From: Astrocystis sublimbata
Taxonomy: Eukaryota; Ascomycota; Sordariomycetes; Xylariales; Xylariaceae
NCBI GenBank assembly: GCA_022453515.1
Contig: JAJNNY010000045.1
Coordinates: forward strand, 186,001 to 250,000
DNA length: 64,000 nucleotides
Direction of reading: 5' to 3'
Shown here: positions 231 to 47,898 of the stretch, in pieces
Layout of the letters: each line of letters begins with the position of its first letter
Numbering within the stretch: position 1 is the first letter of the stretch
Notes under the pieces: model-generated
The model's database searches: none
The model's input: only the letters and a program-made list of their open reading frames with translations
Told to the model about the DNA's origin: nothing
Program-made: the position numbers and the translations under genes

Positions 231-1706
231 TTTCATATACATACACGCACAAGGGACTCAAAAGTGAGGCTTCACAAATGATAATGTGATGATACGAGAT
301 GTGACGAGTTACGGCCGGTTAGAGCGCATGTTTGGCGAGGGACTTCACTACGCGATTTATGATTTTTGTATTTAGGATACCTGGGTTTGATTGTTATTTG
401 AGATTTGTTATTTGTTGCCAGGAGGGGAGTGCCTGAGTAAAGTAGCTGTGCATGTTGATGTATATGTATATACCTACCTACTCTATGGTTAAGGAACACA
501 ATGGCAGCGGAGAAGTCATGTGCATGGAAACAGTAGATAGATTGTGATTTTGGGAGTTCGAGCGAATATCAAAATTCAGGAGGGCATTAGGAGATGGACG
601 TCACTTGTTGGCGAGGTGCTGCTTGTGTATTTGAGCCTCCAAATGAAACAAGCCGAAAGGTATGAGCTCTGCTTGCGTGGCTACCTACCTAAGGTAATCG
701 GCAAGTCCGGGATTGATTTCGCGAGATGAGTTTGTTGGCCAGGGAAATCGCATGATAGTTCACGGCTCCGATGTCACGTTTAGCACTTACTTTACCTCTC
801 GCTCCGAGATTCGGTTTCCGCTCCTACTCGGGGACTGGACTCGGCGATGGAGGAGTTAAGTTCCTTGACAGCCAGTCATGCGATGTGAGAAATTGATGCA
901 ATGTTTACTTATATTCGGTACGCTTTAGAATAAGCATCTGTTTGATCTGGTAACAATCATGTAATGGATTGCCATTTCTGCAGGGTATATGTTGTTCTAG
1001 AAACCAGCTTATAAGTTAAAGAATCACTGCTTTAAGGAATATATGTTTTTACCGCCTGTGATTAACGCTTCCTATTGCTATATCTGATGCGCATTGGAAT
1101 ATAGAAATGGATCTGATTATCAGGTTCAATTATATCGCGGGACGGGCAGGCGGCGATTGATCGCTACCGAGGTACTTGTAGGTTAGGTAGTGTCGCTATA
1201 ACGGGTAGTTCCGAATAGGGCCGGACGGGACGGTGTTGTTGGTATTTTTAGGTGAAACGTTCTGGGGATTATAATACTTACCTACCTGCTTTATTTAGCA
1301 AGTGTGTATAATAGGAAAGCAATTAAACTCTTTCCCTCCAAGTATATACCTGGATTGAAGATGATGCAAATACGTTGACTGGCGGTATGAGTTCGGACCA
1401 GGTCGGCTTTGACGGTCGGCTGAAGAGGATCTATCTACATACGGCGATGGGTGAAGTCGGACGTTACACGAATGAATCCTTGTCTCTGCGATGTGAGACG
1501 TCATCTGACAAACGGCTGAAGTTGTTGCCTGATGACTCGGTAACTTACGACTCAGTCAATGCTTGCTTACCTCCTCCTTCAACTTATTTCTCTTAAACTG
1601 ACATCAAATCAGTAATAGACCCTCAACTCGTAGAACTGACCTGCATGCCCAGACTCGTCGGCGCATAATCAATCAGTTGCCTTGTCGCATACCAAAACCA
1701 CCAACA
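231..1706. other. Intergenic region between protease and DUF5519 gene
   Basis: I see no supportable gene in this 1.5 kb. It is the 3' flank of the protease and the promoter side of the DUF5519 gene. It is moderately AT-rich and has scattered short TACCTACC-type words (for example near 472-480, 684-691 and 1280-1287). The short open frames here have no family resemblance. Confidence 0.6.
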
Positions 1707-2663
1707 ATGAACGCCCTCGTCAGCAGATTCCACGACCTAATACCAGACCAGCAGCACCGCCAAATCGCATACACCACCACCACAGCAACAGCCCTCCTCG
1801 CCCTGCTCGCCTACAGCAGACACTGCTACGTAGAATGGCACGCGCTCGGCGAGGGCGGCGTCCCGCACGACGTGCGGGGCTGGCTGATCAACGTCATCGC
1901 GCACCTCGTCGCGCGCACCGATCACCGCGCGGTGCCAGCGCCGTACGAGAAGCGCAATCGCAAGGCATCTTCGAGGTCCCTTCGTAAAGCCTTCCGCAAA
2001 ACGGAACTCGAAGAGAGGGAAGACAAGGCGATCGCAGCCACTACTACCATCGTCCTCTCAGAGCGCGAAGAAGAGGTCTACGGCCCCTGGAGCCGCACCT
2101 CCTTCCTGCCAGCCGCGCTCTCCGCGCGTCCGCGGCCTAGCGTGCCGACGACCGTCGTCCCGCAGCGCCAGACGAGCCACACTTCCGAGGCCGCCGTGCT
2201 CGCCGTGCAGAAAAACTACCTGGCTGCCCTGCAGCGCGCGAATGCCAGGATCTTCGCTTCGCGCCCTAGCGCGCTGGAGTCGCCTAAGTTTACCGCGCTG
2301 TGGCTCCGCGGCGATAGCGAGGAAGAGAAAGGGGACGTCGATCTGGATCTGGCAAAGGCGAAATGGTTCCCGCCGCGCGCCCGCGGCGAGGTCGCGCATC
2401 TGCACGCCGAGGGCAGCATGCATGTGCATCTGAGCCTTGTCGACGCGGCCGAGGTTGTCAGAAGGGGCTGGGGCGAACGGCATATGCTTTCGGGCGCCAA
2501 GACGGGAGGGCTGCGGTTGCCGTGGGGGTATGTCTTGATCTATGCCCCGAGGGGTGGTCGCGAGGGAGCGGATTTTGACGTCTGGAAGGGCATTGTGGGA
2601 GCTGCGCTGAGGTTTGCGGCCAGGAGCGCCGGTTTCGAGGGGGAGGTTGTGCTGCCGAGCTAG
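1707..2663 (+). CDS. DUF5519 / fungal luciferase-domain protein with N-terminal membrane segment
   Basis: Intronless gene of 318 residues. I chose the ATG at 1707; the frame is open about 30 bases further upstream but without an ATG. Residues 21-36 form a hydrophobic Ala/Thr/Leu segment that could be a membrane anchor. Residues 85-125 are a highly charged linker. The recognisable domain is at about 225-305: GEVAHLHAEGSMHVHLSL, then a GWGERHMLSG block and LPWGYVLIYAPR followed by F-D-V-W. This is the pattern of the DUF5519 domain, labelled Luciferase in domain databases although no light reaction is implied; the function in fungi is unknown. Three His residues in the H-L-H...H-V-H block are conserved-looking and could bind a ligand or metal (inference). 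The gene is markedly GC-rich compared with both flanks. Confidence 0.8.
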   Translation: MNALVSRFHDLIPDQQHRQIAYTTTTATALLALLAYSRHCYVEWHALGEGGVPHDVRGWLINVIAHLVARTDHRAVPAPYEKRNRKASSRSLRKAFRKTELEEREDKAIAATTTIVLSEREEEVYGPWSRTSFLPAALSARPRPSVPTTVVPQRQTSHTSEAAVLAVQKNYLAALQRANARIFASRPSALESPKFTALWLRGDSEEEKGDVDLDLAKAKWFPPRARGEVAHLHAEGSMHVHLSLVDAAEVVRRGWGERHMLSGAKTGGLRLPWGYVLIYAPRGGREGADFDVWKGIVGAALRFAARSAGFEGEVVLPS

Positions 2664-10803: not shown

Positions 10804-12684
10804 ATGCATCCCGCACCGTCCTTGGCAGAGTCGTTCCCCAAAAGCACCAAGGTGGATGATAGATCTCAACATGTCTATGAGACCCCCCAACAGCCTCGCC
10901 TGGCACACGTCGCTCACCATCTTGGACCACCCGAGCCCTTGAAGATCGAAAACCACTTGGATTTCTCTGTCAGTCAGTCTTCGCCGCCCATGAGGAAAGA
11001 TACGGCTTCCAGTACTTCGACCATTGCTTCCGACACAACAGTCGTTACGACTACATCGACTGACACAGCCACTACAGCCTACAGTGTCGAGTCGTCCCAG
11101 TCCATCTTTTCCGTCAAAGATGGCTCCGAGATCTCGAGTCATCGCCGAGCAAGCCGTCGGCGAACTGGTCCTCTGTCCGCGGCGCAGAGGGAGAAGGCTG
11201 CCCTGATCCGCAAGCTCGGCGCCTGCGCTGACTGTCGTAGACGTCGAGTCGCTGTAAGTGATATTCAGAGCTATCTCGGCCTGTTGTAGCGTCCGTCTAA
11301 AGCATGCAAGCTTACATGATTCCGCGTTCAAGTGCCATCCAAACCATCACAATATGTCCTGGGAAGAAGCTGTGCAGAAGTATCGCTCTTCGAGCCCGCT
11401 TCAGGAACTCGCAACTCTTGCTGGACGGCCCATCAGTCCGGCGCCGAGCCAAATGAGGCCACCCCCTCCCCCTTATGCTCAAAATTCACAGGAAATGGAT
11501 ATCGATTCGACCCCTGCTACCCCCAATCCGCGGATTACTCCGGGTCGGACGTCTCCCAACGAGACTCGCATCAACAGGACCCCTCTTCCGTCTGGACCTA
11601 GGATAGACCGGCATTCATCTATCCCCTCCATCCCGAGCCCTATTGTGGCTTCTCATTCGCCATATCCGCTACCGCACGTAGGGTCGATCAGGCACGATCT
11701 CGAAAGCATGGCTTCCAAGATTCTCTCTTCACCGTATAGGAGTCGGTACTCTAACGTCTACGCGCTCCTTATCTACTGGGAAGACGAGCACGAATCGAAC
11801 ATAGCAGGGTCAGTGGAGGAATTGGCGGACGTGTTCCAAAAATATTACCACTACGTGCCCGAGATCATCAAAATTCCGTCGACAGCACGGGATGGCTACT
11901 CCAACCCTTGGAGATGGCTATCCAGAATAATCAACGAATTCGTCGATAAAAGCGACACACGAGATACATTGAAAATTGTGTACTATAGCGGGTACACTTT
12001 TCTCGATGAGAACAGGGAGATGGTGCTATCAAGGTGAGCATATACCTATGGAATATGTTGTGACAGTATTGACTGGAATATAGTTCACGAAATCGTGAGA
12101 AAGCTGGGACTATACGGTGGAATGGAATCCAGAGTATTTTGGAGGATGCAAATTCGGATACACTCATAATCATGGACTCGACATACTACCCTGCAACAAG
12201 AATGGTCCGACGGAGTGGGGTCCTAGAACTGATAGCAGCTTCGGCACCAGAAGACTACCACCACCTCCTCGAACGCGGGATCTTTACCAGGGTATTGACG
12301 GAACATCTTCGGTCCTGGGCTACCCAACATTTCCCAAACTCATTGTCAGCAGCTGAGCTACATTCCAGGCTGTTGACTGCCTTCCCAAAACGTATTCTCG
12401 ACAGATATCCCGAAAGGGGGGCGGCGACGGTATTCCCGGCTCCCCTGCACATGCAAACCTCGAGCAGTGCCCGACTACCTTCCATTACGTTATCACCACT
12501 ACCAATACATTTCCCCAAACCGCACTCCAGCCCTACAGATAGCGTGCACGCGGGCTCGCAGGTAACATTGTCCATCCGACTGGCAGATGGCTCGCCCAGC
12601 CTCGAGAACTGGGCCGAATGGTTTCGGATGATGCCCGAAGGCATTCGCGACGTGAGAGTTGACGGTCCCTACACGCTGAGGTAA
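10804..12684 (+). CDS. Half-Zn-cluster protein with degenerate caspase-like (pseudo-C14) domain
   Basis: Three exons: 10804-11253, 11333-12033, 12084-12684, giving 583 residues. Introns are 79 and 50 bp with GTAAGT and GTGAGC donors. Residues 1-130 are Ser/Thr-rich and disordered. Residues 134-157 read LIRKLGA then CADCRRRRVACHPNHHN: C-x2-C-x6-C is the first half of a Zn2Cys6 cluster, but the second half is replaced by H-P-N-H-H. Residues 185-265 are Pro/Ser-rich. From 290 the chain follows a caspase/metacaspase alpha-beta order: YALLIYWED, a helix, LKIVYYSGY (363-371), WNGIQSILEDA, DTLIIMDSTYY (409-419), then ELIAASAPED and an FTRVLTEHL helix. In active C14 enzymes the first motif ends YYxGH and the second carries DxC or DCC; here they are Tyr371 and Thr417, so both dyad residues are missing. 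Likely a non-proteolytic scaffold or sensor (inference). No gene lies within 8 kb on either side. Confidence 0.8.
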
Positions 12685-20997: not shown

Positions 20998-22956
20998 CTA
21001 CAAGGCAAGAGCAAACCCAACAACACCGACAGCAGCCCATACGAGACCACCAGCCTTCAGCGCACCCGCGGCGCTCATCGCAGTGAGACCGAGCTTCGGT
21101 TCAGGGCTGTATTCGTTGACAGGCGTGGAGTCGGTGGTGCCGTTCCAGCAGTAGCGCTGGAAGCATGAGCGACAAGTCTCAGGGAGCGTGGTCCCCGTGC
21201 GCTCGAGACTGCGGCTGAGCACGGCGCATGCAGCGCAGGCAGGCCACTTGTCGTCGCCGGCGGTGCCGTTACCTTGGGTAGCGACGTTGAACCCGTTCTC
21301 GATGAAGGCATTGCGCTCCTCGTCCGTGTAGGACGGGTCGAAGGTCGACGCGTTGCTGTACGCCGTGTAGGGGCTCAGCGGCACGTACACGATCAGCGGG
21401 GGGATGTTGGCGTCACTGCGGCCGTTCTTGCCAGACGTAAACTCGGAGGTGTTGCACCCGAAGAATGTCGGGCGCTGGTTCAGCTGCAGGTTGATGAAGG
21501 TCTCGGCGTCGGGGATCTTAGGGAACAGCGTGCCGTTACCAATGCTGTTGAGGCTGCGATCGTAGGAGGCGCGCAGAGCTGTGCCGTTGGGGAAGTTGTA
21601 CGTGGTGTCGGCGGAGGAGTCGACGGCGAAGATGACGTCGACGTTTCGCACGGGCTGGATCAGGGGGTGGAGAGGGATGTTCTGCAGATCCTCGCCGCCG
21701 TCCACGAGAGTCAGCAGCTCGTTGTTGGCGTTGTCGTTGACGTCTGAGTGGAACTTGTAGAAGGGGTTGGGCCGCCAATCAGCGATGTCGTTGTCGTCGT
21801 CGCCGATCTTGGTGATGATAGAGGTGAGGGAGTCGGCAATGAAGTCGGGTACCGATCCGTCCGAGAGATTCTTCTGAAGGAGAGCCTGGTTGAACAGAGA
21901 GCTGCTCGTTCCCATTATGTATCCGTACTGATCGAACCCCCGAACGCAATGCCCATCGTCGGGAACAGCGCCGTTGCTGAAGTTGGAACCCAAGTACTTG
22001 GTGGGTGCGAAGGCGAAAAGGGTGGGGTCGAAACTGCCGGTTTCCCAGGGGTTGATCTCGAAGACGGTCGAGTTGAGGGCGACAACTTTCTCGCCAGGGT
22101 GACGTTCGTCCGCCACGAGAATGGGCATGGGTGTGTCGGCATTCATAAAATCACTCGATTCGGCAATGGACGAGAAAGTATAAGTCGGGCCGCCATCTAG
22201 AGCATTGATAAGCTGGTAGGACAGAGCTCGACCCCAGTAGTCGGTGATAGAGACCCCGAAGCCAGCCTCTCGCTTGTCGTCGACCTGTTTGGCTATATCG
22301 TGCCAGTACTCAGCCGTGTTGAGAATGGAGAGCCCACTATCCTTGGGGCCGGTGATGATGCTGTGAGAGAACTGCCACAGTGCTGAGCCCTTCTCGCCGT
22401 CGCGCAGGGCGGAAACGGTGGAGAAGTTGTTGGCGAAGATGGAGCCAACGAGCCAACCACCACCGGATAGACCGGCGAGGTAGGTCGAAGACTGCAGGAG
22501 GCCTCCGATGCCGCCGGAATTGGTCGAACCGGGCGTGCGCGAATCGGCGGCGGCAATGAAGCCGGCGCCGTTCATCAGGGCGCGATATCCACCACCGGAG
22601 ACGGAGATGCCGACATTAGGGACGACGGAAAAGTTGGTCTTGTGGGACTCGACGTAGTTGACGGCGTCGAAGTCGGAGATGCCAGCGCGCTTGAGAAAGT
22701 CCTTCATGGGGTCGATAGTGTTGGCACGACGCTTCTTCAGCCACGATGCCTCGTCGGGGGACAATTGGGCGCCATTCCGGATTGTCGGCTTCTGGGACGG
22801 ACAGTCTACGGTGGCGGGCGCATAATTGCCAGAGGGGCTGTTCGGCACGGCCCTGAGTATTAAATCTCGGGCTAGCACATCGCTTACAGACTCGCTTGGT
22901 GCAGCGAGGGTCGAAGAAATCAATGACAGTAGGGCTGCTGTCGATAGGGAGCGCAT
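20998..22956 (-). CDS. Lysophospholipase / phospholipase B, secreted, probably GPI-anchored
   Basis: Single exon, 652 residues, from ATG at 22956. The frame is open further upstream, but the upstream sequence reads like a leader with a CGATG repeat; starting at 22956 gives a clean signal peptide (MRSLSTAALLSLISSTLAA). Motifs of the PLA2_B/phospholipase B catalytic domain are in order: SGGGYRA at 120-126 (Arg125 phosphate-binding position), GLSGGGW at 162-168 with nucleophile Ser164, and LVDGGED with catalytic Asp419. About a dozen N-glycosylation sequons, Cys pairs near 573-603 (CAACAVL, CRSCFQRYC) and a hydrophobic C-terminal tail at 630-652 fit a GPI-anchored cell-wall enzyme. It removes fatty acyl chains from phospholipids and lysophospholipids, serving phosphate and lipid scavenging. 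Length and motif order match an intact family member. Confidence 0.95.
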   Translation of the reverse strand: MRSLSTAALLSLISSTLAAPSESVSDVLARDLILRAVPNSPSGNYAPATVDCPSQKPTIRNGAQLSPDEASWLKKRRANTIDPMKDFLKRAGISDFDAVNYVESHKTNFSVVPNVGISVSGGGYRALMNGAGFIAAADSRTPGSTNSGGIGGLLQSSTYLAGLSGGGWLVGSIFANNFSTVSALRDGEKGSALWQFSHSIITGPKDSGLSILNTAEYWHDIAKQVDDKREAGFGVSITDYWGRALSYQLINALDGGPTYTFSSIAESSDFMNADTPMPILVADERHPGEKVVALNSTVFEINPWETGSFDPTLFAFAPTKYLGSNFSNGAVPDDGHCVRGFDQYGYIMGTSSSLFNQALLQKNLSDGSVPDFIADSLTSIITKIGDDDNDIADWRPNPFYKFHSDVNDNANNELLTLVDGGEDLQNIPLHPLIQPVRNVDVIFAVDSSADTTYNFPNGTALRASYDRSLNSIGNGTLFPKIPDAETFINLQLNQRPTFFGCNTSEFTSGKNGRSDANIPPLIVYVPLSPYTAYSNASTFDPSYTDEERNAFIENGFNVATQGNGTAGDDKWPACAACAVLSRSLERTGTTLPETCRSCFQRYCWNGTTDSTPVNEYSPEPKLGLTAMSAAGALKAGGLVWAAVGVVGFALAL

Positions 22957-25900
22957 CGTCACAGACGACGGAAGAGTCGGGACTTGTCCGGATACGTCGG
23001 CGATGCGATGCGATGCGATGCGATAGCTAAGGGCGCGGCTGAAGCTGAAAGGGGCAACGAAAAGTATTAGAGTCGAAGACGAGTGGAATAAGGAATCAGC
23101 GATGGAAAATGGAATATGTAACAGGCAGAGAGCCTCGAAGAAGAATGCAAAGTTAGTAATGAAGGAAATCAAGCGAGATGAAGATTGAAAACACGGGTAT
23201 ATGAAGACTGAGGTCAGATTTACGATTTACGGCATTGGCAAGTTTTAAGTATTACCTGCCTCAGGTTTCGACGGGCGGTTGATGGGTTCCTTAGCCCGAG
23301 GGTCGGGTCTACCTAATGCAAGGGTCAAGGCTTAGCAGCTCCAGGGCCCTTGCCTCGCTTGCTACGTCACAGCCCCGGGAGATTGGCTGCCAAGCCTCGA
23401 ATCAGGTACCGGTACGAGGGGCTGCCACCAGTCGCCCTCACTTTTACAGGTAGTCGAAGTACAACCTCCCGGGGGGGCTGTAGGCGGTCGGCTGGGTACT
23501 TTAGGGCTGCTAGGTTCAATGTTGATAGAAGGAATGGATCAGGAAGGAGCAGTATTGACTGTGCCTCCTCGCCTCCCATAGCTGGCGGGCTAGGGCTGGT
23601 CGCAAAGTCCTACCAACTCGCCAGCCTACTGTATATATTTGAACCTGCAATTTTGGCCTGCTGTAGCCCGTCACCATTGGTGGGCTGGCTGTGGGTAATT
23701 CTGAAATCACCTCCCGTTAGTGGGGGCTTACCTAGCCTGTGCATCGCTGTGCGACTCCCGCACGCTACTTGCAACGCTACCTACAACTCGGGAGTTGGTG
23801 CTGGGTCTCTAGCAGCGTTGGCAGGGGCTGAGAGGCACGCTGTACGGAAATAGCAGTTGGGCTATGGAGAACGTGCGTGTCGTGTGCCGACAGCCGAACT
23901 ACTTATCGTCTATCGTCCATCGTCTATGCGTACATAGCTTGACAAGCGACAAGCAAGAGAGGCTCGAGAGGTGCGAGAGTCAGCTGATGTTGAATCTCCA
24001 TGCTGACATGATCCAACGAGTATCAGTAAAGACCCAGGCGTGCCAGGATAGTATGGACGAACATGACCATCTGGATGCGGTCGAGGTCGGTAACAGACTG
24101 AACTCAACCAAGTGTTCGCTTTACTTGGTACACACACAAGTCACCTTGCAGCCCTGTTGATAAGCCATGGCTTTCCTGTCATGCCTGGACGATGGACGTC
24201 CATTTGAGGACTGACACGAAATTCAATAACTACTCATAACTTCGGTCAGCTCACCAGCGCGCCAGGCGACGACCGACCCACCAGGTTCTCCACACACAAA
24301 CGAGCATGGGGTGGCGTTGCTGCCCATGGATGATGTGAGCCGCCAGAACAAGGAGGATTGGATTTCAGCTCCTTGTCTCAAGGCGGTGTTTCGTGACCCC
24401 GGACGCGCCCAGGGACTCTCCATGTCTGAATCGGGAAGCCAGCCAATCGGTGAGCATGCATTAACTTTCTTACATCACGATGATCATTCACGAAGTAACT
24501 ATATGACCTTCACTCCATGTCTGCCATGGCAGTCTGGGCGACATTCATCCCATCTATTCTAGTTCATTTTGCATACCTTGACTGGTGAGACTGGCTAAAT
24601 GTATACTTACACTCTGCACTATCATTACTCCTGTTGTCATCGTCAAAGTTTATTACAGGGGCGATTGCTTGACTAGGTATCTGGCTGGTTACATTAGCCT
24701 TACCGGCACTCAGGTCGTCGACCCAAAGGAAGTCCAACAACAACACTGGGCAATGTTGTAAGTAAGCGGCTTAGCCATGTCAGCCATGCAATGCCAATAC
24801 CAATGCCAACACATACGTACATTACATTGCATACCTCATTCATACCATGGAGCCAAGGAAAGTACGCAAGTTGGTGGCTGTATCTGCACATCAGACCGAG
24901 CCTTCCGAGCTGTTACGGCCGTTGGTTGCCTCAGTTTACAATATAGAATGACGCATTGGATGCGACGTTCTTAACATTTTACACGCAGCTCAGATAACTA
25001 ACTGGACGCGTTGCAATTGCGCATGCACATTGCCCCACGGGCTGGTGTCTGAACCCGAGGATCCGAACAAATACGCATCTTTATGGATGACGGAGTGATA
25101 TGACCTTTGAACAAACCGCGCGACTCATGCCATGCCATGCACTACACTACCTACCGCCCTAAGCCCGTAACGCGGCAGCAACACACCTCGGACGGCTTGG
25201 ACGGCCGCTCTTTCAAGGTCATAGTGTGCATTGTGGATTAGGGAACTAGCCGGCTATCAACGCACGATCCCGAGGAACCCGCGGCGCCGTGCGTTAAGCT
25301 TCACCTTGATGACTTGACTGACGGGAATAATGAGTTTGCATCTTGGATTGAAAGCCCGAAACTATTCTCAAAATCCCATCGACAGCTTAGTGTACTCAGA
25401 AAAGATCATAAAACTTCTGTAACTGGGCTCCAAAACCAGGTAGGAAACTTCGCTCTGGGTCCTTACCGTGGATGTCCCGAGATAGGGGTGCATTGCACCT
25501 CAAACGTGCATGTCCATGAAATTGCATAGATGTCGCTGCAATACTGTCACATCTGTCGCAAGAAATGTTATAGAAAAAAGTCCTACACTAACCTAATTAC
25601 CGCATTCAGTCGGTCAGTCAATCCATGAACAGCTGAACATTGCATAAGCAGTCCCACGAGTCTGAGGGCCTGAGTCCTACGAAGGGGGCTCATTTCCCAA
25701 ACTGGCAATATCAAGTACCAACGTACTTAAGTAGGTATTTTACCTAGACGAGGACTGCATGCGGCACGGGACGGAAAGCGCCGGCCGTAAGCACACCGGC
25801 CGGTGCCCCTGGCACCTGAAAGGGAGTGGGTGGCCCGGTCCGCGGGCGGCGTGAGTATCCCGTCCCGGCCTATGCAAGTAAGTAAGTACCTACTTACTAG

Positions 25901-27975: not shown

Positions 27976-30245
27976 TCACGACTTCGACTCCGATACCAGC
28001 GTCGGCGCTATCCTGCGCCTCTTCGCCAGCGGTACGCTGCTGCTGTCATCCTTGCTATCGTCCTTCTCCTTCTCCTTCGCCTCTCTCTTCGTACCAGCCG
28101 CGACATTAGCGCTGCCCGGCGTTTCCGGTGGCGTCGCGATGGGCATAGGGCCGCCCGTCAGTTTGCCTGAGTCGGCAGCAGTGATGCTCGGCACGTTCCC
28201 GCCTATGAGCGGTGGATTGTTCATGACAGAAGCCTGGGTCGCGATCGACGACGCCGAGTTGGATCTAGCAGGTGACGGTGGGCGAGCATTCACGAATGAT
28301 GTCGTCGGTGGCGGTGACGGAGCTGGGAACGAGGTCGCGGAATTGCGATGCTGATGACCTGGGAAAGGAGACGGCGGCGCAAAAGCCGAATTGGGAGTCG
28401 GCAGGGGCGTGGTTTGGTTCGACGCGGTGCCAGTTGCTGAAAATGACGCGTTCTTGCTCAGCATCTCGCCCTTATACTCCTGGCCCAGTTCACCTGGGGT
28501 GAATGATAGTGTCGAGCAAAAGCCATCCGACGATGATATCAGTAGGGTAGATCCATCACTCGACCTGGCGTTGTTAGATTAAACATCACAGGATCACTCT
28601 TCAAAAAAGACAGAGCACTTACCAAGTCAGATCAGTAAAAGTGGCAAGATGTAGATTGCTTACGACGCAGATAGGGGTCATCTGCTGGGTATCATAGAGA
28701 AGAACTGCGTCTTGGGTCGCTACAGCATATACCATGCGATATGGCAATGCAAAAGTAGGCTTAGGTCCGGCCGTGGAGGCACCAGTATCAAGGCTAGGTG
28801 ATTTCAAGGGTGCCATCTTTTCGGGATCCGGGGCTGACGACGTTGGTGGCGGAGGCGGATCCATGATGGCGGATGGTTTTGATATAGGGTCTGGAAGTGC
28901 CGGGATCGGGTCCCCAGCTGACGTGTCCATCGTGATGTGTTGTGTGACTGGAGGACTCTGCCGAAGAGTGTACAGGATGGGAGAGCATCGAATAGCAACG
29001 GAAGGCTTCTTGTGTCCTGGCAAATGGGCGATAGGAGGCTTGTTGATGCCGCCTCGTGTGTAAATGTATACTGTGTTCGTCACCTCGGACGTCGCTTTGC
29101 CATCTACTTGGCGCTGGATCTGGTACTGACCGGCAGGGGTGAGTAGAAGGCTCCCATCAGGAGTGAATGTCAACCGCCTGAAGAAGGACGTCAGAGTCTC
29201 ATTGGCGTAGAGGTTCGCGTTCCTCGTTCCGAGGGTGTTGCTGTAACCTGGTTTGGGAGAAGCTTCGGCCGCCATTGGCATCACTGCGGGCAATGGCAAA
29301 GACGGTGCTGGCGATTCAGATCGGCGCGAGGAGAATGAGGAACGTCTACTATGGCTGACCACACTCGGCGGGTTCATCGGCAAAGGAACAGACTGCGGCG
29401 TTCCCGGCGCTGATAAGACGGGAGAGCCGACGGATGCGGACGGGGTATCAACGGCCACTGCAAGCTGGGCTCGGTAGTTCGTATCGGGAGGTGCAGGACT
29501 GCTGGACACGATGCGGCGAGGAGGCAGATCCATCTTTGCGTGACTGGCCACCTTGGGCGGCTCGGAGCCATGGCTCGTCAGTGTGTACTGGCCGTCCTTC
29601 GTCTTCAAGGAGTATACATGGACCGATCGATCGGAGGATTGAGTCGCGATATATTCGTTTAAGGGATCCCAGGAGACACCCTGGACATAATGACTGTGTT
29701 CTGCGATTTGGCGGACGAGTGAACCTGGGGACCACGGTTAGCTTTTGGCATACTCTGAGCTGGCGCGGTAGACAGCAAAACTTGCCTGTGCTAGCGTCGT
29801 AGATGCGGGCGACGTTGTCCATGCTGCCAACAATAAAATAGGCAGCATCGGGGGACCAGGCTAGATCGTATATCTCGGACCCGGTCTGGCGAAACATGTG
29901 CTTTGCACGCCACGTCTCCTTGTCTTCGATGCCCTCGTTGCCGAAGCTGGTGGCATGGTGAATCTCGGAGGGAACCCATAGTATCACGTTTCCATCGTCG
30001 CCGGCCGAAGCCAGGGTCTCGCCTTTGGGGGCCCAGCGAACCACATTGACAGCCTGGGAATGCTTGGATAGGGTGGACAGGTACTCGACCCGTCGGTCTT
30101 CTCCCTCGCCGTCGACCTTCCAGATGCGAACACTGTTGTCGCCTCCTGCGGTGGCCAATCTCCCCTTGCCGTTTGGCTCGAAGTGGGCAGAGTAGATGGG
30201 ACTGTGGTTCTCGTGCCAATTGATGATAAGGGGAGTCGACTTCAT
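27976..30245 (-). CDS. cac2: Chromatin assembly factor 1 subunit B (p60/Cac2), WD-repeat histone chaperone
   Basis: Three exons (minus strand): 30245-29786, 29724-28623, 28564-27976; 716 residues. It starts MKSTPLIINWHENHSPIYSA, the hallmark Cac2/CHAF1B N-terminus. WD repeats follow (LATAGGDNSVRIWKVD, LASAGDDGNVILWVP, FIVGSMDNVARIYDASTG), then across intron 1 SLVRQIAEHSHYVQGVSWDP and SSDRSVHVYSLK. A long Ser/Pro-rich insert precedes the last propeller blades (YAVATQDAVLLYDTQQMTP, and SSDGSTLLISSSDGFCSTL across intron 2, followed by F-T-P-G-E-L-G). The C-terminus is disordered with a basic KRRRI nuclear signal. CAF-1 deposits H3-H4 behind replication forks with the p150 and p48 subunits. Intron 1 (29725-29785) must use a GC donor (GCAAGT) to keep frame. 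Intron 2 is 58 bp with GTAAGT. Confidence 0.95.
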
Positions 30246-33200
30246 GGTAACGGCGCCCCGTAAGGCCTAGGCATACGACGATTGGCGAGTCGGTGCGGCT
30301 GAGAAATCGGCGGGTGAGAGGGGGTGTCGATGATATGGTGATGATGATGATGGTGGGCAGACAGCAGAATTACGAGGGTGCGGTTTGCTCGTACACAATA
30401 GCTACAATAATGCAGCAGAAGCTCGAGAGCGGCAGTGATCGGACGATGGATGGGGTGGGCAGGCAGGCAGCTGTGGTAGCTGTGGTAGGGTAGGTAGAAA
30501 GAAGCTAATTACGTGGTACAAGGTCCAGTCCTGGATATTTGGAAGAAGGTCAATAACTCAATGCCAGGCGAAGTACAAGCTGTTGCAACCTGCAGGCCGG
30601 GGCAGACGAGACAATGTAGATGCAACAAGCTGGGCGATGCGACCTTCGGCGCAAAGCAGACGTGTGATGTGCTGTTGAATGAGAGGAGTGGTGTACACGA
30701 CAAGGTGAAGAAGGCATGCGATGCTGTTGTTGAATGGCAGAAAAGAACACCGGGGTACTGACTAGAAGATTGATTGCCTTTGAGGTAGAGTTCAAGTTCA
30801 ACGTTGTTTGTTTGGTCGCGGGAATAGCTTAGAAGAGCTACCACTATCAGATTGAGGATTGGAGATAGCTAGTAGCTTAGGTAGCTGGAGAAAGAAATGA
30901 GCTTTAGGACCACGATTCGGTCAACACAGGCAGGCTACACTTGGGGTTTTTGCGCGTCAACAAAAGCCCACAATGGAGTTTCGAATGATGAGTGAAGGTG
31001 TGCAAGTTCTAGAGATGGAGTGAGCTGATCATGTTTGTTGTTTGACTGCGATTTCGTTTGTCGATCGACTTCCGGCTCCAGGAGATGAAGGCCCGGGAGG
31101 AATGAATGTCCACGGGTACTTGCCCTATCGAGGCCGGGGAGGTACTGGGCCTCCCCAGTTGGGCGAGCAGGTGACATCTGATAGAGCGACGCCCAAAGTA
31201 CCTAGCTCCCCTTCAGCTGTACCGCAAACCCACCAGCTGCTGGGATGTCTTTTCTGCGAGGGGCAGCTGATAGTTTCGACTGGGCTTTGGTTTCAACGTC
31301 GTGCTTTCTCGAATCGGTTTTCTGAAGCCTACAAGCCCACCCTTCTTTTCCCTTTCCCCTGACTATCTCCAGAACCATACTTCAAGTTGGTATGAGTCGG
31401 TGCACGGGGGTTTGGCACGGGAGAGTCGACGGGGCGCGTTCCAGTGCGTTTGGACCAATCACCATCTTAGCCCACCCCTCCAACCCAACAGAGCGCAGGT
31501 GGTAACGGTAACCATGGCACCCCCCGAGCCCCCCTTCCCGTGCGTCGACTGGAGCCCTGGAGCTTTCAGGTGCGCAGCTCCAGTCCTGCTCCAGGCCAGG
31601 ACAGCCCTGGAGAGCGCTGATCAATCCTGATGGCAACGCCTCACCTTTTGGCATCTCACATCTCGCATTGCGCCTTCGGTTTTTGGGTAAGAGCATGCAT
31701 GCCATATTCCCCAGCATTTCCCTCTCTTTCTTCGATGACCATGCTGTCAAGGGTCATCTAGTACTAGCTCGCATCCACACAGACACCGAATTGTGTCGTG
31801 AGTGGGCTGATGCTAGGTGTCGGCCATCTGTGTTAGAAACATGCGGGGATGACATTCTCAAACCCATGCGTCGCACCTATGGTCCAAGGCCCGGCTCCAG
31901 GATTGCCCTTGCCGCAGGACTGTGAACACCTGCCTACCAGCGACAACATTCTTGACCCGCAGTTGAGAACAAGAGCGCTCTCGAGATCAACACTTTGCTC
32001 GACTAGCATGTCGCCTCTGTCCCGCCGCAGGTAGACGAAAAGAAACGGTATGCTGATGCTGGGTCATGCCGAGGACAACAACATGCTGAGTAGAGAGCAT
32101 ACAATGACATGCCTCCGCTCGCACCCATCCCATCCCATCAACCGCGCTTTGGGATTGGTTTTCAAATAACCTGCAGCAACGGGTTCATCATTCCAACGTT
32201 TCAGCTTGGCTGACTGCGCTTGATGGCCATGAGATCAGATAGGCTACAAGAGCAGAGAAACGGAAGCGGTCATGATGGGCAAGACCTTGCTTGTGGCACG
32301 CGAGGCGATCAAGATGACTAGACTTACGTTGACATATGACATTGTCAAAATTGTCTATATCCCGACTCCTCACCCATCGATTGTGTATCCTCTTTATTCC
32401 CGCCTCATGCCCGCCGCGCGTCTGTTCAACCTCGTTTGAGTTCATCGTCACTTGGAGTCCGATGAGACCATGTTATCTGCTATGCGACATTGGCGACATT
32501 GTCCTTCCTGCTCGGATATATATGTGCGACAAAAGCTGTATACACCGCAGCTTTGAAAACCATATCCGTCTAAGTCGACAGATCTGGAGCTCTGACTGGC
32601 TGGAGCACCCCTGCAAAGCTTCCATCTCCCACGTGAGGGCGGTCAATACAGGTACCTTTCTAGACTCCCATGGGGAGACATCTACATAGTATGCCAGACA
32701 CAGGTGCAGACATCATATATTACTGGTTGACAAGGTACGGCATTGCCTGCCGATTCCGTACACAATCCACTGACTGCTCATATCTACCTCATCCCAAGCA
32801 CCTGCCACTGCAGGAACTTGCAGCAGACTATCGCTCTGCTAATCGTTGGAGTAATGTCACATATTCTACATCTAGTACGAATGGGCTGTTTATTGGTTGA
32901 GTGATGATCGAGTTTGTTCCCCGTGGATGGACGGCCATATCGAGGTGTTAGGATGTTGACGAACGCATCCAGTTCGGAGATGGAGATCAAACCTCATTGC
33001 ACCTAGCCTCAAGTCCTATCCAAAATCACCTGTCACTTAATTCTTGGATTCGACAAGGTCTTTCTCAAACCCTAGATTAACTTAGTGTTCTCGCCCCTCA
33101 CCCTCGCTGTTAAGGCACTAACTTTTCCACATCTTCTTTTCGGGATATCTGGTGTAGGAAGAAAGCCAAACAGTCATCAACAAGTCCTGCGTCACTATAT

Positions 33201-34739: not shown

Positions 34740-37700
34740 ATGCCGAACGAGACTGCATTACTCGTATATTCGGGCCTCGGCCTGGGCATCACCACTGCAC
34801 TCTCGACGCCAGCTATTGTGCAGCTTGCTAAGCAGATCCGCAAACGAGCCCCTAGGACCGAAGGCTATGAAGATGAAGATGGCCAGAGCAGCGAAGCCGC
34901 CATCAAGGCATTCAGCGCCAAGCTTCCCAAGATCTTGATATTGGGGTTGTCGGTGGCCGGGCTCTGTATCTCTATTGCAACCGCCGTTCTCTCGACAACT
35001 AGTCCAAGCAGCCAAGGCAACATATTATTTCTCGAAAATTGGTTGGCCGTTGCAGGGTGGGTGAGTTGTAACACAACATGACGACTAGCTACCGCCAATA
35101 AGCTCACTCGGTTTGATAGGTTCTATTGGCATTCCAGGCTATATGCATCGCAGCCAGTCGCAACTCGGTAGTTGCATACAACCTCGGCATATGCTTGACC
35201 CTATCCTGCTTGGCAATGGCCCTTTCATTGGGGTTTCAAGATAAGCAAGTTGCCATCAGTCTATGGAAATATGATGACACTGTTTTTGCACTTCGCCTCA
35301 CCGACTTCGTGGTTGTTGTGAGTCTGGCCTTTGCGAGCTTGACAATTCCCCGACGGCCTGATGTCTTCTACGAAGGGGAGCTCATCGACAGGCTATACAC
35401 CTCCTCGGCGTGGAATAGGTGGACCTGGAGTTGGTCATCCAACATCTTGGCCAGAGCGACGAAGAAAAAGAATCTCGATTTGGAGGATTTGCCGAGGCCT
35501 AACCACCATATACGAGCCAAAGATGTCATACAGCTGTGGGAAACTCAAGGATTCAACAAACCCCTCTGGAAATCCGTCATATATGCAAACAAAGGGGCTT
35601 TTACCCTGCAGTGGGTGTTGGCCTTTGTAACTGCTGTGCTCAACTTTGCACCGCAGTGGGTTGTGCTTCAACTGCTTCGTCTTCTCGAGAGCAGAACCAA
35701 TAACGAGCCGGTCAGCTACGAGGCATGGATATGGACTTTCTGGCTGGTAGTGGCCATTCTGGCCCAGGCGTGGGTAGAGACGCAGCTCTTCTGGCTTTCC
35801 ACTGCCGATCTAGCCATCAAAGTTCGCACCCAGCTGTCGGCCCTCATCTTCCACAAGTCAATGAGACGGAAAGACGTCAAGGAGGCAAGCAGGAAGAAAA
35901 GCGCAACTCCCACAGACCCTGTCGTGACTGGCCCAGCAGGTCAATCTTGCAGTACCGACACGCCGGAAATGGACCAGAGCGAGGAGGATGACGCAGCGTT
36001 ACTCAGCAAGAGTAAACAGAGTACTGTAAACTTGATCGGTGTAGATGCGAAGCGCGTTTCCGATTTCTCAAACTTCAACTGGTTCATTCCATCCTGCTCA
36101 TTCAAGCTCATCGTTTCTCTGGTTTTCCTCCTAGATCTACTGGGCTGGAAACCACTTATCGCAGGCTTCAGCACTATGCTTATTGTAACACCCCTGAACG
36201 GCTGGATCTCAAAGAAATACTCCGACGCACAAGACAGACTGATGAAGGTACGCGACGAGAAGATGGGTGTCGTTTCCGAAGCTCTTTCCGGAATTCGACA
36301 GATTAAATTCTCTGCACTTGAGTCTGAATGGGAGCAGAAAATTAATTCGGTCAGAGAGAGGGAACTCAAGAGTGTGTGGGATGTGTTCAGATTTGATGCC
36401 GTACTCTTCGGTTGCTGGATTACGAGCCCGATTTTACTGGCCGCTGTTTCTCTGGCTGTGTACGCTGCGTTGCATGGGTCCCTCATACCTTCTGTCGCCT
36501 TCGTCAGTCTCAGCATCTTCAAAGCTCTTGAAGTCACCCTATCCATCGTTCCTGAGCTAATTACCGATCTCCTTGATGCGTGGGTGTCAATCAAGCGAAT
36601 CGATGCCTACTTGCAAGGAGATGAAATCTCCGAAACCACAAAAGAATCAGATGAAATCTCGTTTGATAATGCCACCATTGCCTGGCCCACTGATTCAAAG
36701 TCGACCAGTGATGAGGAAGACCCCGATCGTTTTATCTTGCGGGATATTACTGCCACCTTTCCAAAGGGTGAGCTCTCAGTTATATCGGGCAAAACCGGCA
36801 CCGGCAAGTCGCTTCTGCTTGCTGCTCTGCTTGGCGAAGTCGACATCAAGGCTGGCCAGATATCGCGGCCACGAGCTCCTCCACTTCATGAACGTAACGA
36901 TAGTAAAGCCAATAAGAGTAACTGGATCCTTCCAGGCGCTATCGCATACGTTTCACAAATACCTTGGGTAGAGAATGCAACAGTCAAAGAAAATATTCTG
37001 TTTGGGCTGCCAGATGATCCCTCGAGATACAAGACGACAACGGAAGTCTGTGCTTTGACAAAAGATATCGAAATGTTTGCTGATGGGGATCGAACCGAGA
37101 TCGGTGCCAACGGAATCAACCTGAGTGGTGGTCAAAAATGGCGAATCACGTAAGTTTAAACCAATTTTTGTAATTTCCGAACTTCACATAAGTCAGACGT
37201 TGATGTCATGAAAGGCTTGCGCGAGCCTTGTACTCTCGTGCCGGCATACTAGTACTTGATGACATATTTAGTGCCGTCGACGCACATGTCGGCCGGCACA
37301 TATTTGAGCAAGCCCTGAACGGCCCGCTGGCTGTTGAGCGAACGCGCATCCTAGTTACTCATCACGTCGCTCTATGTGAGTCGAAGACGAAATACTTAAT
37401 GGAGTTGGGAGATGGCTACGTCATGAATGCAGGGCTTCTTTCGGAATTAGAGGAAACTGGTCGTCTCGAGCAGATCAGGAGTCACGAACAAGTCGATGAA
37501 AACCATCGGGACGAGGAGGAAACCACCGCGGTCAATTCTGAAGAGACATCCCAGCTAGAGACCGAAGCTGTTGATGAGCCTCTCACCAAGATCCCCTCAC
37601 ATGTCAAGGCGCCGCGTAAATTCGTCGAAGATGAAAAACGAGAAGAAGGGGCCATCAAAGTGCGCGTCTATGCCACATACCTTAAATACAGCGGCTCGTG

Positions 37701-39758
37701 GCCGTTCTGGATTGGAGCTGTTGCTCTTTTCCTCACCACCCAGGGCCTCACAATTGGGAGAAGTTGGTGGCTCAGGATCTGGACGGGTATATATGAAGAT
37801 GAGAAGTCACAGTCGGCGGCAGACATGCATTACGCCTACCAATACACGCTGCAACAGACGGCCATGGACACCCTGGTTAAGCCTCAGTCTACTCAGTCCA
37901 CTCATAGTATGGCTTTCTACCTTGGCGTCTACGTCGCCATTTCACTTGCCGCCGCCATGCTATCGACGTTACGATGGTACTACATATTCTGTGGCTCTTT
38001 GAGTGCATCAAGAGAGCTGTTCGCACGTCTCAACTTCGTCATTCTTCGAGCTCCCTTGAGATGGCTTGACACAGTTCCCCTCGGTCGCATTTTGAACAGA
38101 TTTACAGCCGACTTCCATTCGGTTGACACACATCTAGCTTATGCAGTAGCTTTCGCTGCCAACGCCTTTCTTAACCTGATCGGCGTCATTGTGGCCGGTC
38201 TGTTCGTGTCGCCCGTCGTCATTGTGCTGTCGATTCTTCTTCTCGCCATCGCATCCTATTCGGCAAATCAGTACCTGCATGCCGCCCGATCCGTCAAACG
38301 AATGGAATCTATTGCCAAATCCCCGGTCTTCGAACAATTCGGATCCGCGCTGACGGGAGTGCTGACGATTCGGTCGTTCAACAAATCCCAAATCTACATT
38401 GAACGCATGTACCGACTATTAGACAACTGGGCCGTTACGACATGGCATCTCTGGCTCTTCAACCGTTGGATCAGCTGGCGCATGTCCGTCGTCGGCAGTC
38501 TCTTCACGGCATTCGTCACCATCTTCATACTTATTAGCCCGGACATGGACTCCGCGCTCGCTGGCTTCGCCCTCAGTTTTGCTCTAGAGTTTTCAGCGTC
38601 AATCATGTGGTAAGTCATTCATTCCCCTTTCTGGCACGCCTCGGAGGCATGAATCACCCTAACAGGTTTCTGTGCCCCTCTATCATCTGCAAACTCCCGA
38701 ATCATGAGCAATCTTCAAGATAAAAGGTGATTGCTAACTCTAATGGTTGAAGGACGATCCGCCACTACGCAAATGCAGAACTGGAGATGAATGCGGCGGA
38801 ACGCGTCGTAGAGTACACCGAGTTGCCGACGGAAGACCTCGGGGGCGTGCAGCCCCCTGCTGCATGGCCCACCGAGGGGCGCGTTGAGGTGACCGATCTG
38901 GTCGTCAGCTACGCAGAGGACCTACCGCCGGTGCTAAAGGGCCTCAACTTCTCCATCAACAGAAACGAGCGCGTGGGCGTCATCGGACGTACGGGAGCAG
39001 GCAAGTCGTCTCTGACGCTGGCCTTATTTCGTTTCGTCGAGGCACGGTCGGGCAATATCTTCATTGATGGTGTCGACGTATCCAAAATTCGTCTGCACGA
39101 CCTGCGCAGCCGGCTTGCTATCATTCCACAAGACCCGGTGCTATTCAGCGGCACCGTACGGTCGAATCTCGACCCTTTCGACAATCACACGGACGCGGAG
39201 CTCTTCGACTCGCTAGCGCGCGTGCATCTTATCTCCGAGAGCGAGACGTCACCCGGGACTCCCGCATCCGCAACCCAGCAGAGCGAGGCCAGCCCGAAAA
39301 ACACGAACATTTTCCGCGATCTCAAGAGCACTATCTCCGAGGGCGGTTTGAATCTGTCGCAAGGCCAGCGACAGCTGCTGTGTCTGGCCCGCGCCATCGT
39401 TTCACGGCCCAAGGTCATGGTGCTGGACGAGGCCACATCAGCAGTGGACATGGCGACGGACGCGCTGATCCAGGAATCAATCAGGAAAAACTTCAGCGAC
39501 AGTACCTTGCTCGTCATCGCGCACAGGCTGAGCACCATTGCCGACTTCGACCGCGTCCTCGTGCTCAGCGACGGCCGCGTGGCGGAGTTCGGTACGCCTA
39601 GAGAGCTGTGGGAGGCTGGCGAAGAAGGACAGGATGGAGATAAGGGCATCTTCCGCGCCATGTGCGAGCAGAGTGGTGAGCGGGATGTTTTGAGGAGGAT
39701 TGTGTATGGGGAGGATTTAGGTACCGGTACTGGTACAGGGGATGGGAAATCGACGTGA
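34740..39758 (+). CDS. ABCC-type full-length multidrug resistance (MRP) transporter
   Basis: Four exons: 34740-35060, 35120-37149, 37215-38609, 38753-39758, giving 1583 residues. Introns are 59, 65, 65-style short and one of 143 bp, all GT-AG. Order: N-terminal TMD0 helices (about residues 10-190), TMD1, NBD1, TMD2, NBD2. NBD1: Walker A GKTGTGKS 664-671, Q-loop YVSQIPW, signature LSGGQ 775-779, Walker B ILVLDD 795-800, His switch THH. NBD2: GRTGAGKS 1327-1334, PQDPVLF, LSQGQ 1450-1454, Walker B with catalytic Glu1475, AHRLS. NBD1 carries Asp800 where NBD2 has Glu, the usual ABCC asymmetry in which only site 2 hydrolyses ATP well. It exports amphipathic organic anions, conjugates or drugs from plasma or vacuolar membranes; the substrate is unknown. 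The residue count and complete motif set indicate a functional gene. Confidence 0.95.
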
Positions 39759-45510: not shown

Positions 45511-47898
45511 ATGATGAAGTACCTGAATCGGATTGCCGTTCCGGCACTCGTCAGCGCCGCAACAGTATCCGCTTTCACATTCCCAGATTGCACCGATGGC
45601 CCCGAAGAATTAACATCGAACTTGGTTTGCGACACTACAGCTACCCCCGCGGACAGGGCGGCAGCACTTATAAAGGCGTGGGACATCTCGGAAAAGTTGA
45701 CTAACCTTGTCAAGTACATACAAGATACACCCGAGAATGGCGACTGAGCTAACACAAGCAATAGCAATAGCACGGGCAATGCAAGACTGGGAATCAGCCC
45801 CTACGAGTGGTGGAGCGAAGCTCTTCACGGTGTCGGTGGCAGCCCTGGAGTGAGTTTCGCTGCAGCAGGAGAGTTCTCGGGGGCCACTTCCTTTGCCAAC
45901 CCAATCCTCATGTCAGCAGCGTTCGATGACGACCTTATACATGCGATCGCGGAGGTCGTCAGTACAGAGGCGCGAGCTTTCAGCAATGCTGGGCGGGCTG
46001 GTCTTGACTACTGGACTCCGAACATCAACCCGTACAAAGATCCGCGATGGGGAAGAGGCATGGAAACCCCCGGGGAGGACCCGTTCCGCATTAAGGGGTA
46101 TGTGAAGGCTTTGATCGAAGGCCTCCAAGGCACTGAGAATACCACCAAGGTAATTGCGACTTGTAAGCACTACGCGGCATACGACTTGGAGGACTGGCAC
46201 GGCATAGAGCGGTACGAGTTCGATGCCATTGTCACGATGCAGGACCTTGTCGAGTATTATCTGCCACCTTTCCAGCAGTGCGCCCGCGACTCTAAAGTGA
46301 AGTCTTTCATGTGCTCCTACAACTCGGTCAACGGTACACCGGCTTGCGCTTCCACTTATCTAATGGAAACGGTACTGAGAGACTTCTGGGAATGGGACGA
46401 TGAAAGCCAATACGTCACTAGCGACTGCAATGCTGTTCAGAACTTCCACGAAGACCACAACTACACCAAGACAGCTGCGGAATCGGTAGCGCTCGCAATG
46501 AATGCCGGCACAGACACGACATGTGAGATCGGACCCAACACCAACGTCACAGGCGCCTGGGAGCAGGGGCTTCTAAAGGAGTCGGTGATCGACCGAGCGC
46601 TCACTCGCTTATACGAAGGTCTTATTCGAGCAGGATTCTTCGACGGTCCCGAAGCAACATCATACAGACAGCTCGGGTGGGCAGACGTCAACACGGCAAC
46701 AGCTCAAGAGTTGGCACTTCGCTCAGCTGTGGACGGAATTGTGCTGAAGAAAAACGACGGCCTGCTTCCACTGGAGAGCTCTAACGCATCTTTGGCTTTG
46801 ATCGGCTTCTGGGCAGGTGAGCCTAGAGGAAGACGGGATATGCTCGGCGGATATGCTGGAGTTTCTCCCTTCTACCACACTCCGACCTATGCGGCACAGA
46901 AAGCTGGTTTCAAGGCCACGACGGCAACCGGGCCCGTCAACCAGTCAACTTCAGCCACCGATACTTGGACTGCGAACGCACTGCAAGCTGCCGCAGATGC
47001 AGACGTGATCGTGTACTTTGGTGGCAACGACTTGAGTATCGAGAAAGAAGAGATCGACCGTGACGCAATCGCGTGGCCCGGCGCTCAATTGTCGCTCATC
47101 GAGAAGCTGTGTGCCCTGGGGAAGCCGTGTATTGTGGTCGAACTCGGAGATCAGAATGACGACAGCCCGCTCCTCGAGAATGGCAACGTCTCTGCTGTTG
47201 TTTGGACTGGCTTCCCCGGCCAGGATGGAGGACCTGCTGTTTTCGACATACTGACTGGGAAATCTGCCCCTGCTGGAAGACTCCCCTCAACAGTATACCC
47301 GGCCGATTATGTAAATCAGGTGCCTTTGACAGACATGAATCTGAGGCCGAGCGCTTCGAACCCCGGCAGAACGTATAAGTGGTATAATGAATCCGTTCTG
47401 CCCTTCGGTTTCGGCCTTCACTACACGTCATTCAAGGCATCCTTCAAGCAAGGCGGTGTAGCCAATAAGACCTACGCGATCAGCGACATGATCGAAAAAT
47501 GTGAACTGCGATACTTGGACTTGTGCGAATTCGAACCCATCACCATCTCGGTTGCGAATGCCGGGGAGGTAACGTCCGACTTTGTCGCGCTGGCTCTCTT
47601 GTCTGGGGAGTACGGGCCGGCACCCCATCCGATCAAGCAGCTAGCAGCATACACTCGGCTCAAGGGCATCGAGGCAGGCAAATCGGAAGAAGCGAAATTG
47701 ACGATGCAATTGGGCGAGATGGCGCGCGTTGACGAGAATGGTCACACGATCCTCTATCCTGGGAAATATCAGGTGCTGTTGGACGTGCCGACCCAAGATC
47801 AGATCACGTTCGAATTGACGGGCGAGCCTGTGATGCTTATTGAGTTTCCTCAACCCCCTGCAGATCTGGGCCAAGGCAATGGGCATGAAGATCTCTAA
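45511..47898 (+). CDS. GH3 exo-1,4-beta-xylosidase, secreted
   Basis: Two exons, 45511-45713 and 45765-47898, giving 778 residues. A TGA at 45745 in the raw frame lies inside a 51-bp intron (donor GTACAT, branch GCTAAC at 45748-45753, acceptor AATAG); splicing restores LVNNSNSTGNARLG followed by S-P-Y-E-W-W-S-E-A-L-H-G. Signal peptide 1-21. GH3 N-domain motifs: YWTPNINPYKDPRWGRG, METPGEDP, KHYAAYD, and the nucleophile Asp288 in VTSDCNAV, with the C-domain GLLPLESS and VVWTGFPGQDGGPAVFD blocks. A fibronectin-III-like C-terminal domain follows (ITISVANAGEVTSDFVALAL). The DPRWGRG/SDCxAV combination is that of beta-xylosidases rather than beta-glucosidases. It releases xylose from xylo-oligosaccharides outside the cell. 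The first residues up to LV come from exon 1, and the length is normal for the family. Confidence 0.92.

What the first reader, a model, noticed from the sequence alone, without database searches (positions are those of the whole stretch)
10804..12684. Half-zinc-cluster protein fused to a caspase-like fold that has lost both catalytic residues
Seen in the sequence: LKIVYYSGY stands where active C14 peptidases have YYxGH, and IIMDSTYY stands where they have a D-x-C or DCC. The flanking helices and strands (YALLIYWED, WNGIQSILEDA, FTRVLTEHL) are preserved, so the fold is kept while the dyad is gone. The N-terminus carries CADCRRRRVACHPNHHN, half of a Zn2Cys6 with His replacing the second half. 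A pseudo-protease with a zinc or DNA-binding-like patch suggests a scaffold, sensor or decoy rather than an enzyme, possibly in fungal programmed cell death or immunity.
Basis: partly seen in the sequence, partly recalled or inferred. Interest (0 to 1): 0.75.

Follow-up and report, generated by a model that had tools for sequence, protein, structure and literature searches.

The report
Fungal pseudo-caspase with half zinc cluster
A conserved fungal protein, usually listed only as hypothetical, keeps the shape of a cell-death protease but has lost its cutting residues, and it carries a shrunken zinc-binding motif related to those of fungal gene regulators, so it probably works as a regulator or scaffold and not as an enzyme.

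The parts
10804..11253 (+). Exon 1: N-terminus predicted disordered, basic segment, first two Cys of the half zinc cluster
   Evidence: pLDDT mostly under 50 for residues 7-120
11224..11350 (+). Half zinc cluster CADCRRRRVA|CHPNHH (residues 141-156), interrupted by intron 1 immediately before the third Cys
   Evidence: ligand candidates kept in 112-114 of 120 rows; intron place shared with C146, C148 and C178 blocks
11254..11332 (+). Intron 1, phase 0, between A150 and C151
   Evidence: GTAAGT...CAAG
11333..12033 (+). Exon 2: linker and first part of the caspase-like domain
11567..11602 (+). Linker motif RINRTPLPSGPR (residues 229-240), five residues invariant in the 120 rows of A1
11741..12510 (+). 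Caspase-like domain, residues 287-526 (interrupted by intron 2)
11993..11995 (+). Codon of Tyr371, place of the catalytic His
12034..12083 (+). Intron 2
   Evidence: GTGAGC...ATAG
12084..12684 (+). Exon 3: rest of the p20-like part, p10-like part, C-terminal tail WAEWFRMMPEGIRDVRVDGPYTLR, stop
12181..12183 (+). Codon of Thr417, place of the catalytic Cys

Best explanation
The gene encodes a pseudo-protease: a complete C14 (caspase/metacaspase) p20+p10 fold without the catalytic residues (shown in sequence and in a predicted structure). The nucleophile was probably lost before the sampled family spread, since no listed relative has it. It descends from a fungal C14 subfamily that also has members with an intact dyad and a longer C-terminal block (supported by the in-genome relative C158). 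In front of it sits a basic block with half of a Zn2Cys6 cluster whose second half is replaced by a His-rich stretch, plausibly a single-zinc C3H site (inferred). I think it works by binding and not by cutting: the caspase fold acts as a dimerisation or capture surface, and the basic zinc block places it in the nucleus or on a nucleic-acid or protein partner (inferred).
Against: No functional, localisation or zinc data exist here. The window protein itself hits neither PF00656 nor PF00172. Against three conventional C14 proteins alone the profile match is not significant (3.1%), so the sequence link runs through C158 and C133. The intron place is shared by only 2 of 5 weakly matching blocks; C117 has its intron elsewhere and C157 and C88 read through. 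Four of 120 rows keep a Cys one place early (DCAYY), and at least one of them (P0112) also has His, so activity in that small lineage is not formally excluded. His is kept in 40 of 42 rows of one well-supported branch, which relaxed constraint alone does not explain.
Confidence: 0.6

Rival explanations
1. cFLIP-like partner (a narrower version of the best reading): the dead caspase fold pairs with an active C14 relative, for example the C158 product, and tunes its activity.
For: A dyad-intact relative with the same domain and tail is encoded in the same genome. cFLIP-L and TbMC4 are precedents (passages of PMC11121540, and PMC6426788).
Against: No interaction data; the two genes lie on different contigs (C130 and C158); co-occurrence across species was not tested; activity of C158 is itself only inferred from its dyad.
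Confidence: 0.25
2. Nuclear regulator (also a narrower version): mainly a transcription- or chromatin-associated factor in which the caspase fold is only a dimerisation or scaffold module.
For: The half cluster resembles Zn2Cys6 blocks in upstream segment and, for two of them, intron place; very basic block; invariant proline-rich linker motif.
Against: The second half of the cluster, needed for a binuclear site, is missing; PF00172 is not hit. No DNA-binding evidence.
Confidence: 0.3
3. A still active protease using a shifted or different nucleophile.
For: The fold is intact; four of 120 rows have Cys at 416 and 36 of 120 have Ser there.
Against: No Cys, Ser or Thr at 416-419 is conserved family-wide; position 417 is Ala in 94 of 120; His is missing in 64 of the 117 rows with a letter there.
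Confidence: 0.04
4. Decoy or sensor in fungal immunity or programmed cell death.
For: Only the general association of caspase folds with cell death.
Against: Relatives are widespread and alignable over the whole protein. No NLR- or gasdermin-type match among the 20 window ORFs scanned, of 32 listed at 170 aa or more; ORFs are single frames, so spliced genes may be missed. Both 'caspase-like' passages of a 2025 review of fungal cell death concern CHAT proteases (PMC12881547).
Confidence: 0.06

Closest known systems
Fungal/yeast and trypanosome metacaspases (C14B)
   Same: Caspase fold; among the nearest Foldseek hits (TbMCA2, C. glabrata metacaspase, Yca1)
   Different: No catalytic His/Cys; no PF00656 hit; 13-15% identity in the Foldseek rows of those three
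Pseudo-caspases: cFLIP-L, caspase-12, TbMC4 and bacterial pseudo-orthocaspases (most often Tyr/Ser)
   Same: Caspase fold with catalytic residues replaced; Tyr at the His place as in TbMC4 and the YS pseudo-orthocaspases (passages of PMC6426788; PMC11121540)
   Different: Other kingdoms; Thr/Ala at the Cys place here; joined to a Zn2Cys6-type half cluster; no death-fold or other Pfam domain found
Zn2Cys6 zinc-cluster block (PF00172)
   Same: First half CX2CRX5C, upstream segment ending IRKLGAC, intron before Cys3 as in C146 and C148
   Different: Second three Cys missing, replaced by CHPNHHN; not recognised by PF00172
Type I metacaspases with an N-terminal zinc finger
   Same: Disordered N-terminus plus zinc motif plus caspase fold (the review passage says a proline-rich region with or without a zinc finger; PMC13304501)
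   Different: The zinc motif here resembles Zn2Cys6, and the catalytic dyad is absent; no direct sequence comparison with those fingers was made

Membership tests
Active peptidase family C14 | Caspase p20/p10 fold | tested here: met
   (predicted model)
Active peptidase family C14 | Catalytic His | tested here: not met
   Tyr371 in the window; His in 53 of 120 relatives
Active peptidase family C14 | Catalytic Cys | tested here: not met
   Thr417; Cys in 0 of 120 relatives
Active peptidase family C14 | Pfam PF00656 above cut-off | tested here: not met
   no PF00656 hit at E<=10
Pseudo-caspase (inactive C14 homologue) | Caspase fold with catalytic residues replaced | tested here: met
Pseudo-caspase (inactive C14 homologue) | No proteolytic activity | not testable with these tools
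   needs purified protein
Zn2Cys6 binuclear cluster | Six Cys in two CX2CX6-type halves | tested here: not met
   only the first three Cys
Zn2Cys6 binuclear cluster | PF00172 match | tested here: not met
   no family at E<=10 for the 64-residue zinc block
Zn2Cys6 binuclear cluster | Upstream segment and intron place shared with genuine clusters | tested here: met
   segment shared with C146, C148, C157; intron place with C146 and C148, read by eye, 2 of 5 weakly matching blocks
cFLIP-like caspase regulator | Binds and modulates an active C14 partner | not testable with these tools
   candidate partner C158 only

The most novel reading that the evidence does not exclude
A Sordariomycete-wide family in which two degenerate modules, half of a Zn2Cys6 cluster and a dead caspase, form a conserved nuclear regulator that controls active fungal caspase-like proteases or gene expression. 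To my knowledge it would be the first conserved pseudo-caspase family of eukaryotes outside animals and trypanosomes.
Probability: 0.3. Interest if true: 0.75.

Novelty: new variant of a known kind. Interest (0 to 1): 0.52.

Why it matters
The pseudo-caspases met in the papers seen here come from animals (cFLIP, caspase-12), one trypanosome (TbMC4) and bacteria. A family spread across Sordariomycetes, in a genome that also encodes dyad-intact relatives, gives a tractable setting to ask what a caspase fold does once it cannot cut. It also accounts for proteins that databases leave as hypothetical or label, apparently wrongly, 'tyrosine-protein phosphatase non-receptor type 6'.

Tried and rejected
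Direct Pfam and PDB sequence searches with the window protein found nothing useful. Profile comparison against three conventional C14 proteins alone was not significant. Literature: the rows listed by searches show no paper on this family, judged by title and start of abstract; searches listed 20 of 162 and 20 of 26; only open-licence PMC papers are held. The papers listed were not opened. Neighbouring genes give no functional clue. Pseudogene decay of the window gene was rejected: intact 583-aa frame, and 222 homologues at E<=1e-3 among 7990 scored, 120 listed. The third protein search, meant to widen sampling beyond the family, listed 120 of 290 hits, which by their names and high scores look like the same family. 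CHAT proteases were met in passages of PMC12881547, but no sequence test against them was made. VIA-align barely tested the model outside about 286-526, so nothing is claimed about the fold of the zinc block.

Full report
What is there. The reported span is exactly one gene: exons 10804-11253, 11333-12033 and 12084-12684 on the + strand, with GT/AG splice sites, giving 583 aa and a stop. It is identical to NCBI hypothetical protein F4808DRAFT_261491 of Astrocystis sublimbata. The assembly is 42.6 Mb in 189 contigs. One search scored 7990 candidates and found 222 relatives at E<=1e-3; the best 120 are listed, at 44-88% identity apart from the protein itself, and all 120 were aligned as A1. Those with organism names are Sordariomycetes by my reading of the names; some rows have none.

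Dyad. Position 371 is His in 53 of 120, Tyr in 39, a gap in 3, and one of ten other residue types in the remaining 25. Position 417 is Ala 94, Thr 14, Val 5, Pro 3, Ile 2, Met 2 and never Cys. D415 is invariant. Four of 120 carry DCAYY, a Cys one place early, and at least one of these (P0112) also has His. A quick tree of the 120, built without those two columns, splits them into a side with 54 not-His, 3 His and 3 gaps, which holds the window protein, and a side with 50 His and 10 not-His. His/not-His needs 11 changes on this tree, 7 if only well-supported branches count, against 38.6 for shuffled labels. Within the second side, one branch keeps His in 40 of 42 rows. The simplest reading is that Cys went first and His followed in several lineages; the tree is unrooted, so the order is an inference.

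Origin of the dead domain. The same genome holds relatives of this module (only the best candidates are scored, so the list may be incomplete). C158 has YAGH and LLDCC, shares the tail that follows the domain, and continues into a block (STLLLLSLPVMVWD...) that the window protein lacks. My exon-joined C158 passes PF00656 at 27.1 bits against 21.4; C133 keeps HYGGH and LLDCC but scores below the cut-off, 15.6. C1 keeps His but has lost Cys (HYAGH, LLMDSG). C125 has lost both (YYVGF, LLYDCG). Against the three conventional ones alone it fails (3.1%). The link therefore runs through intermediates.

Half zinc cluster. Cys141, Cys144, Cys151, His155 and His156 are each kept in 112-114 of 120 rows, most of the rest being gaps. 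A search of the genome with this block found, besides the gene itself and its C178 paralogue, weak matches at C88, C146, C148, C117 and C157, E 0.003-0.07. The C146 and C157 blocks match PF00172 above the cut-off (28.5 and 25.8 against 21); C148 is below it (17.6); the window block has no match. C146, C148 and C157 share with it an Arg-Pro segment upstream and R(K/R)(L/I).(A/S)C..C at the start of the cluster. C146 and C148 have an intron, read by eye from the DNA, at the same place as the window gene, directly before the third Cys; C117's lies earlier; C157 and C88 read through. C88 shows no second half in the stretch printed, so half clusters of this kind may not be unique to this gene. On balance this supports descent of the half cluster from a full Zn2Cys6. 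In a standard cluster the first zinc uses Cys1-4 (recalled). Here Cys1-3 plus a His could hold one zinc; that is inference.

Other features. A linker motif, residues 229-240, has five residues invariant in all 120 rows of A1 (R232, P234, L235, P236, P239), and residues 229-241 have the highest mean conservation of the eleven regions compared (0.884). It looks like a docking or phosphorylation site (inference).

Paralogue. C178 carries the N-terminal part, the half cluster and the C-terminal tail, and in its open frame the caspase-like part is missing between them. Its first exon shows two in-frame stops in the aligned frame, so it is probably a damaged copy.

Function. I take the protein to be a non-enzymatic regulator; partner control and nuclear regulation cannot be separated with present evidence. 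The immunity idea has no direct support: no NLR- or gasdermin-type match appeared among the 20 single-frame window ORFs scanned, of 32 listed, and both 'caspase-like' passages of a 2025 review of fungal cell death concern CHAT proteases (PMC12881547, passages).

Known relatives. Pseudo-orthocaspases and TbMC4 most often replace His/Cys by Tyr/Ser (passages of PMC6426788), a close parallel to Tyr/Thr here. That paper says the pseudo-proteases it found 'seem to be restricted to prokaryotic orthocaspases'; its analysis was of prokaryotic genomes. cFLIP-L and caspase-12 are animal precedents (passages of PMC11121540). The rows listed by searches show no paper on a fungal pseudo-caspase family with a zinc cluster; the library holds open-licence papers only.

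Verdict. I rate it a new variant of a known kind, interest 0.52.

Noticed in passing
L014:3662-4754 (G000:C178, - strand): Paralogue with half zinc cluster and C-terminal tail but no caspase-like domain; two in-frame stops in the aligned first exon, probably a damaged copy
   Followed up: partly
L016 (G000:C1:1038288-1039372, - strand): Second pseudo-C14 gene: His kept (HYAGH), Cys lost (LLMDSG), with weak C2H2-finger-like matches below the Pfam cut-off further along
   Followed up: partly
L038 (G000:C125): Relative with YYVGF and LLYDCG; its C-terminal piece lies over 2 kb further on with other open frames between, possibly an insertion
   Followed up: no
L039 (G000:C133, - strand): C14-like domain with intact dyad in a long frame with a weak kinase-like match (PF06293, E 0.05)
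   Followed up: no
L023 (G000:C88:553747-553854, - strand): Another protein with ACDSCRRKKTKCDPSH and no second Cys half in the stretch printed: a second half cluster in this genome
   Followed up: no
window 11567-11602 (+): Linker motif RINRTPLPSGPR between the zinc block and the caspase-like domain; five residues invariant in 120 of 120 rows of A1
   Followed up: partly
P0101, P0103, P0104, P0113: Relatives named 'tyrosine-protein phosphatase non-receptor type 6', 'oxidoreductase', 'BRCT' or 'acetamidase'; of these P0101 and P0103 were scanned and show no such Pfam domain, so the names look mis-transferred
   Followed up: partly
window 1602-2660 (+), 21001-23226 (-), 27979-30266 (-), 35120-39755 (+), 45748-47895 (+), 52686-54311 (-): Ordinary neighbours: luciferase-domain protein, lysophospholipase, CAF1B/HIR1-like WD protein, ABC transporter, GH3 glycosidase, carboxylesterase
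   Followed up: partly
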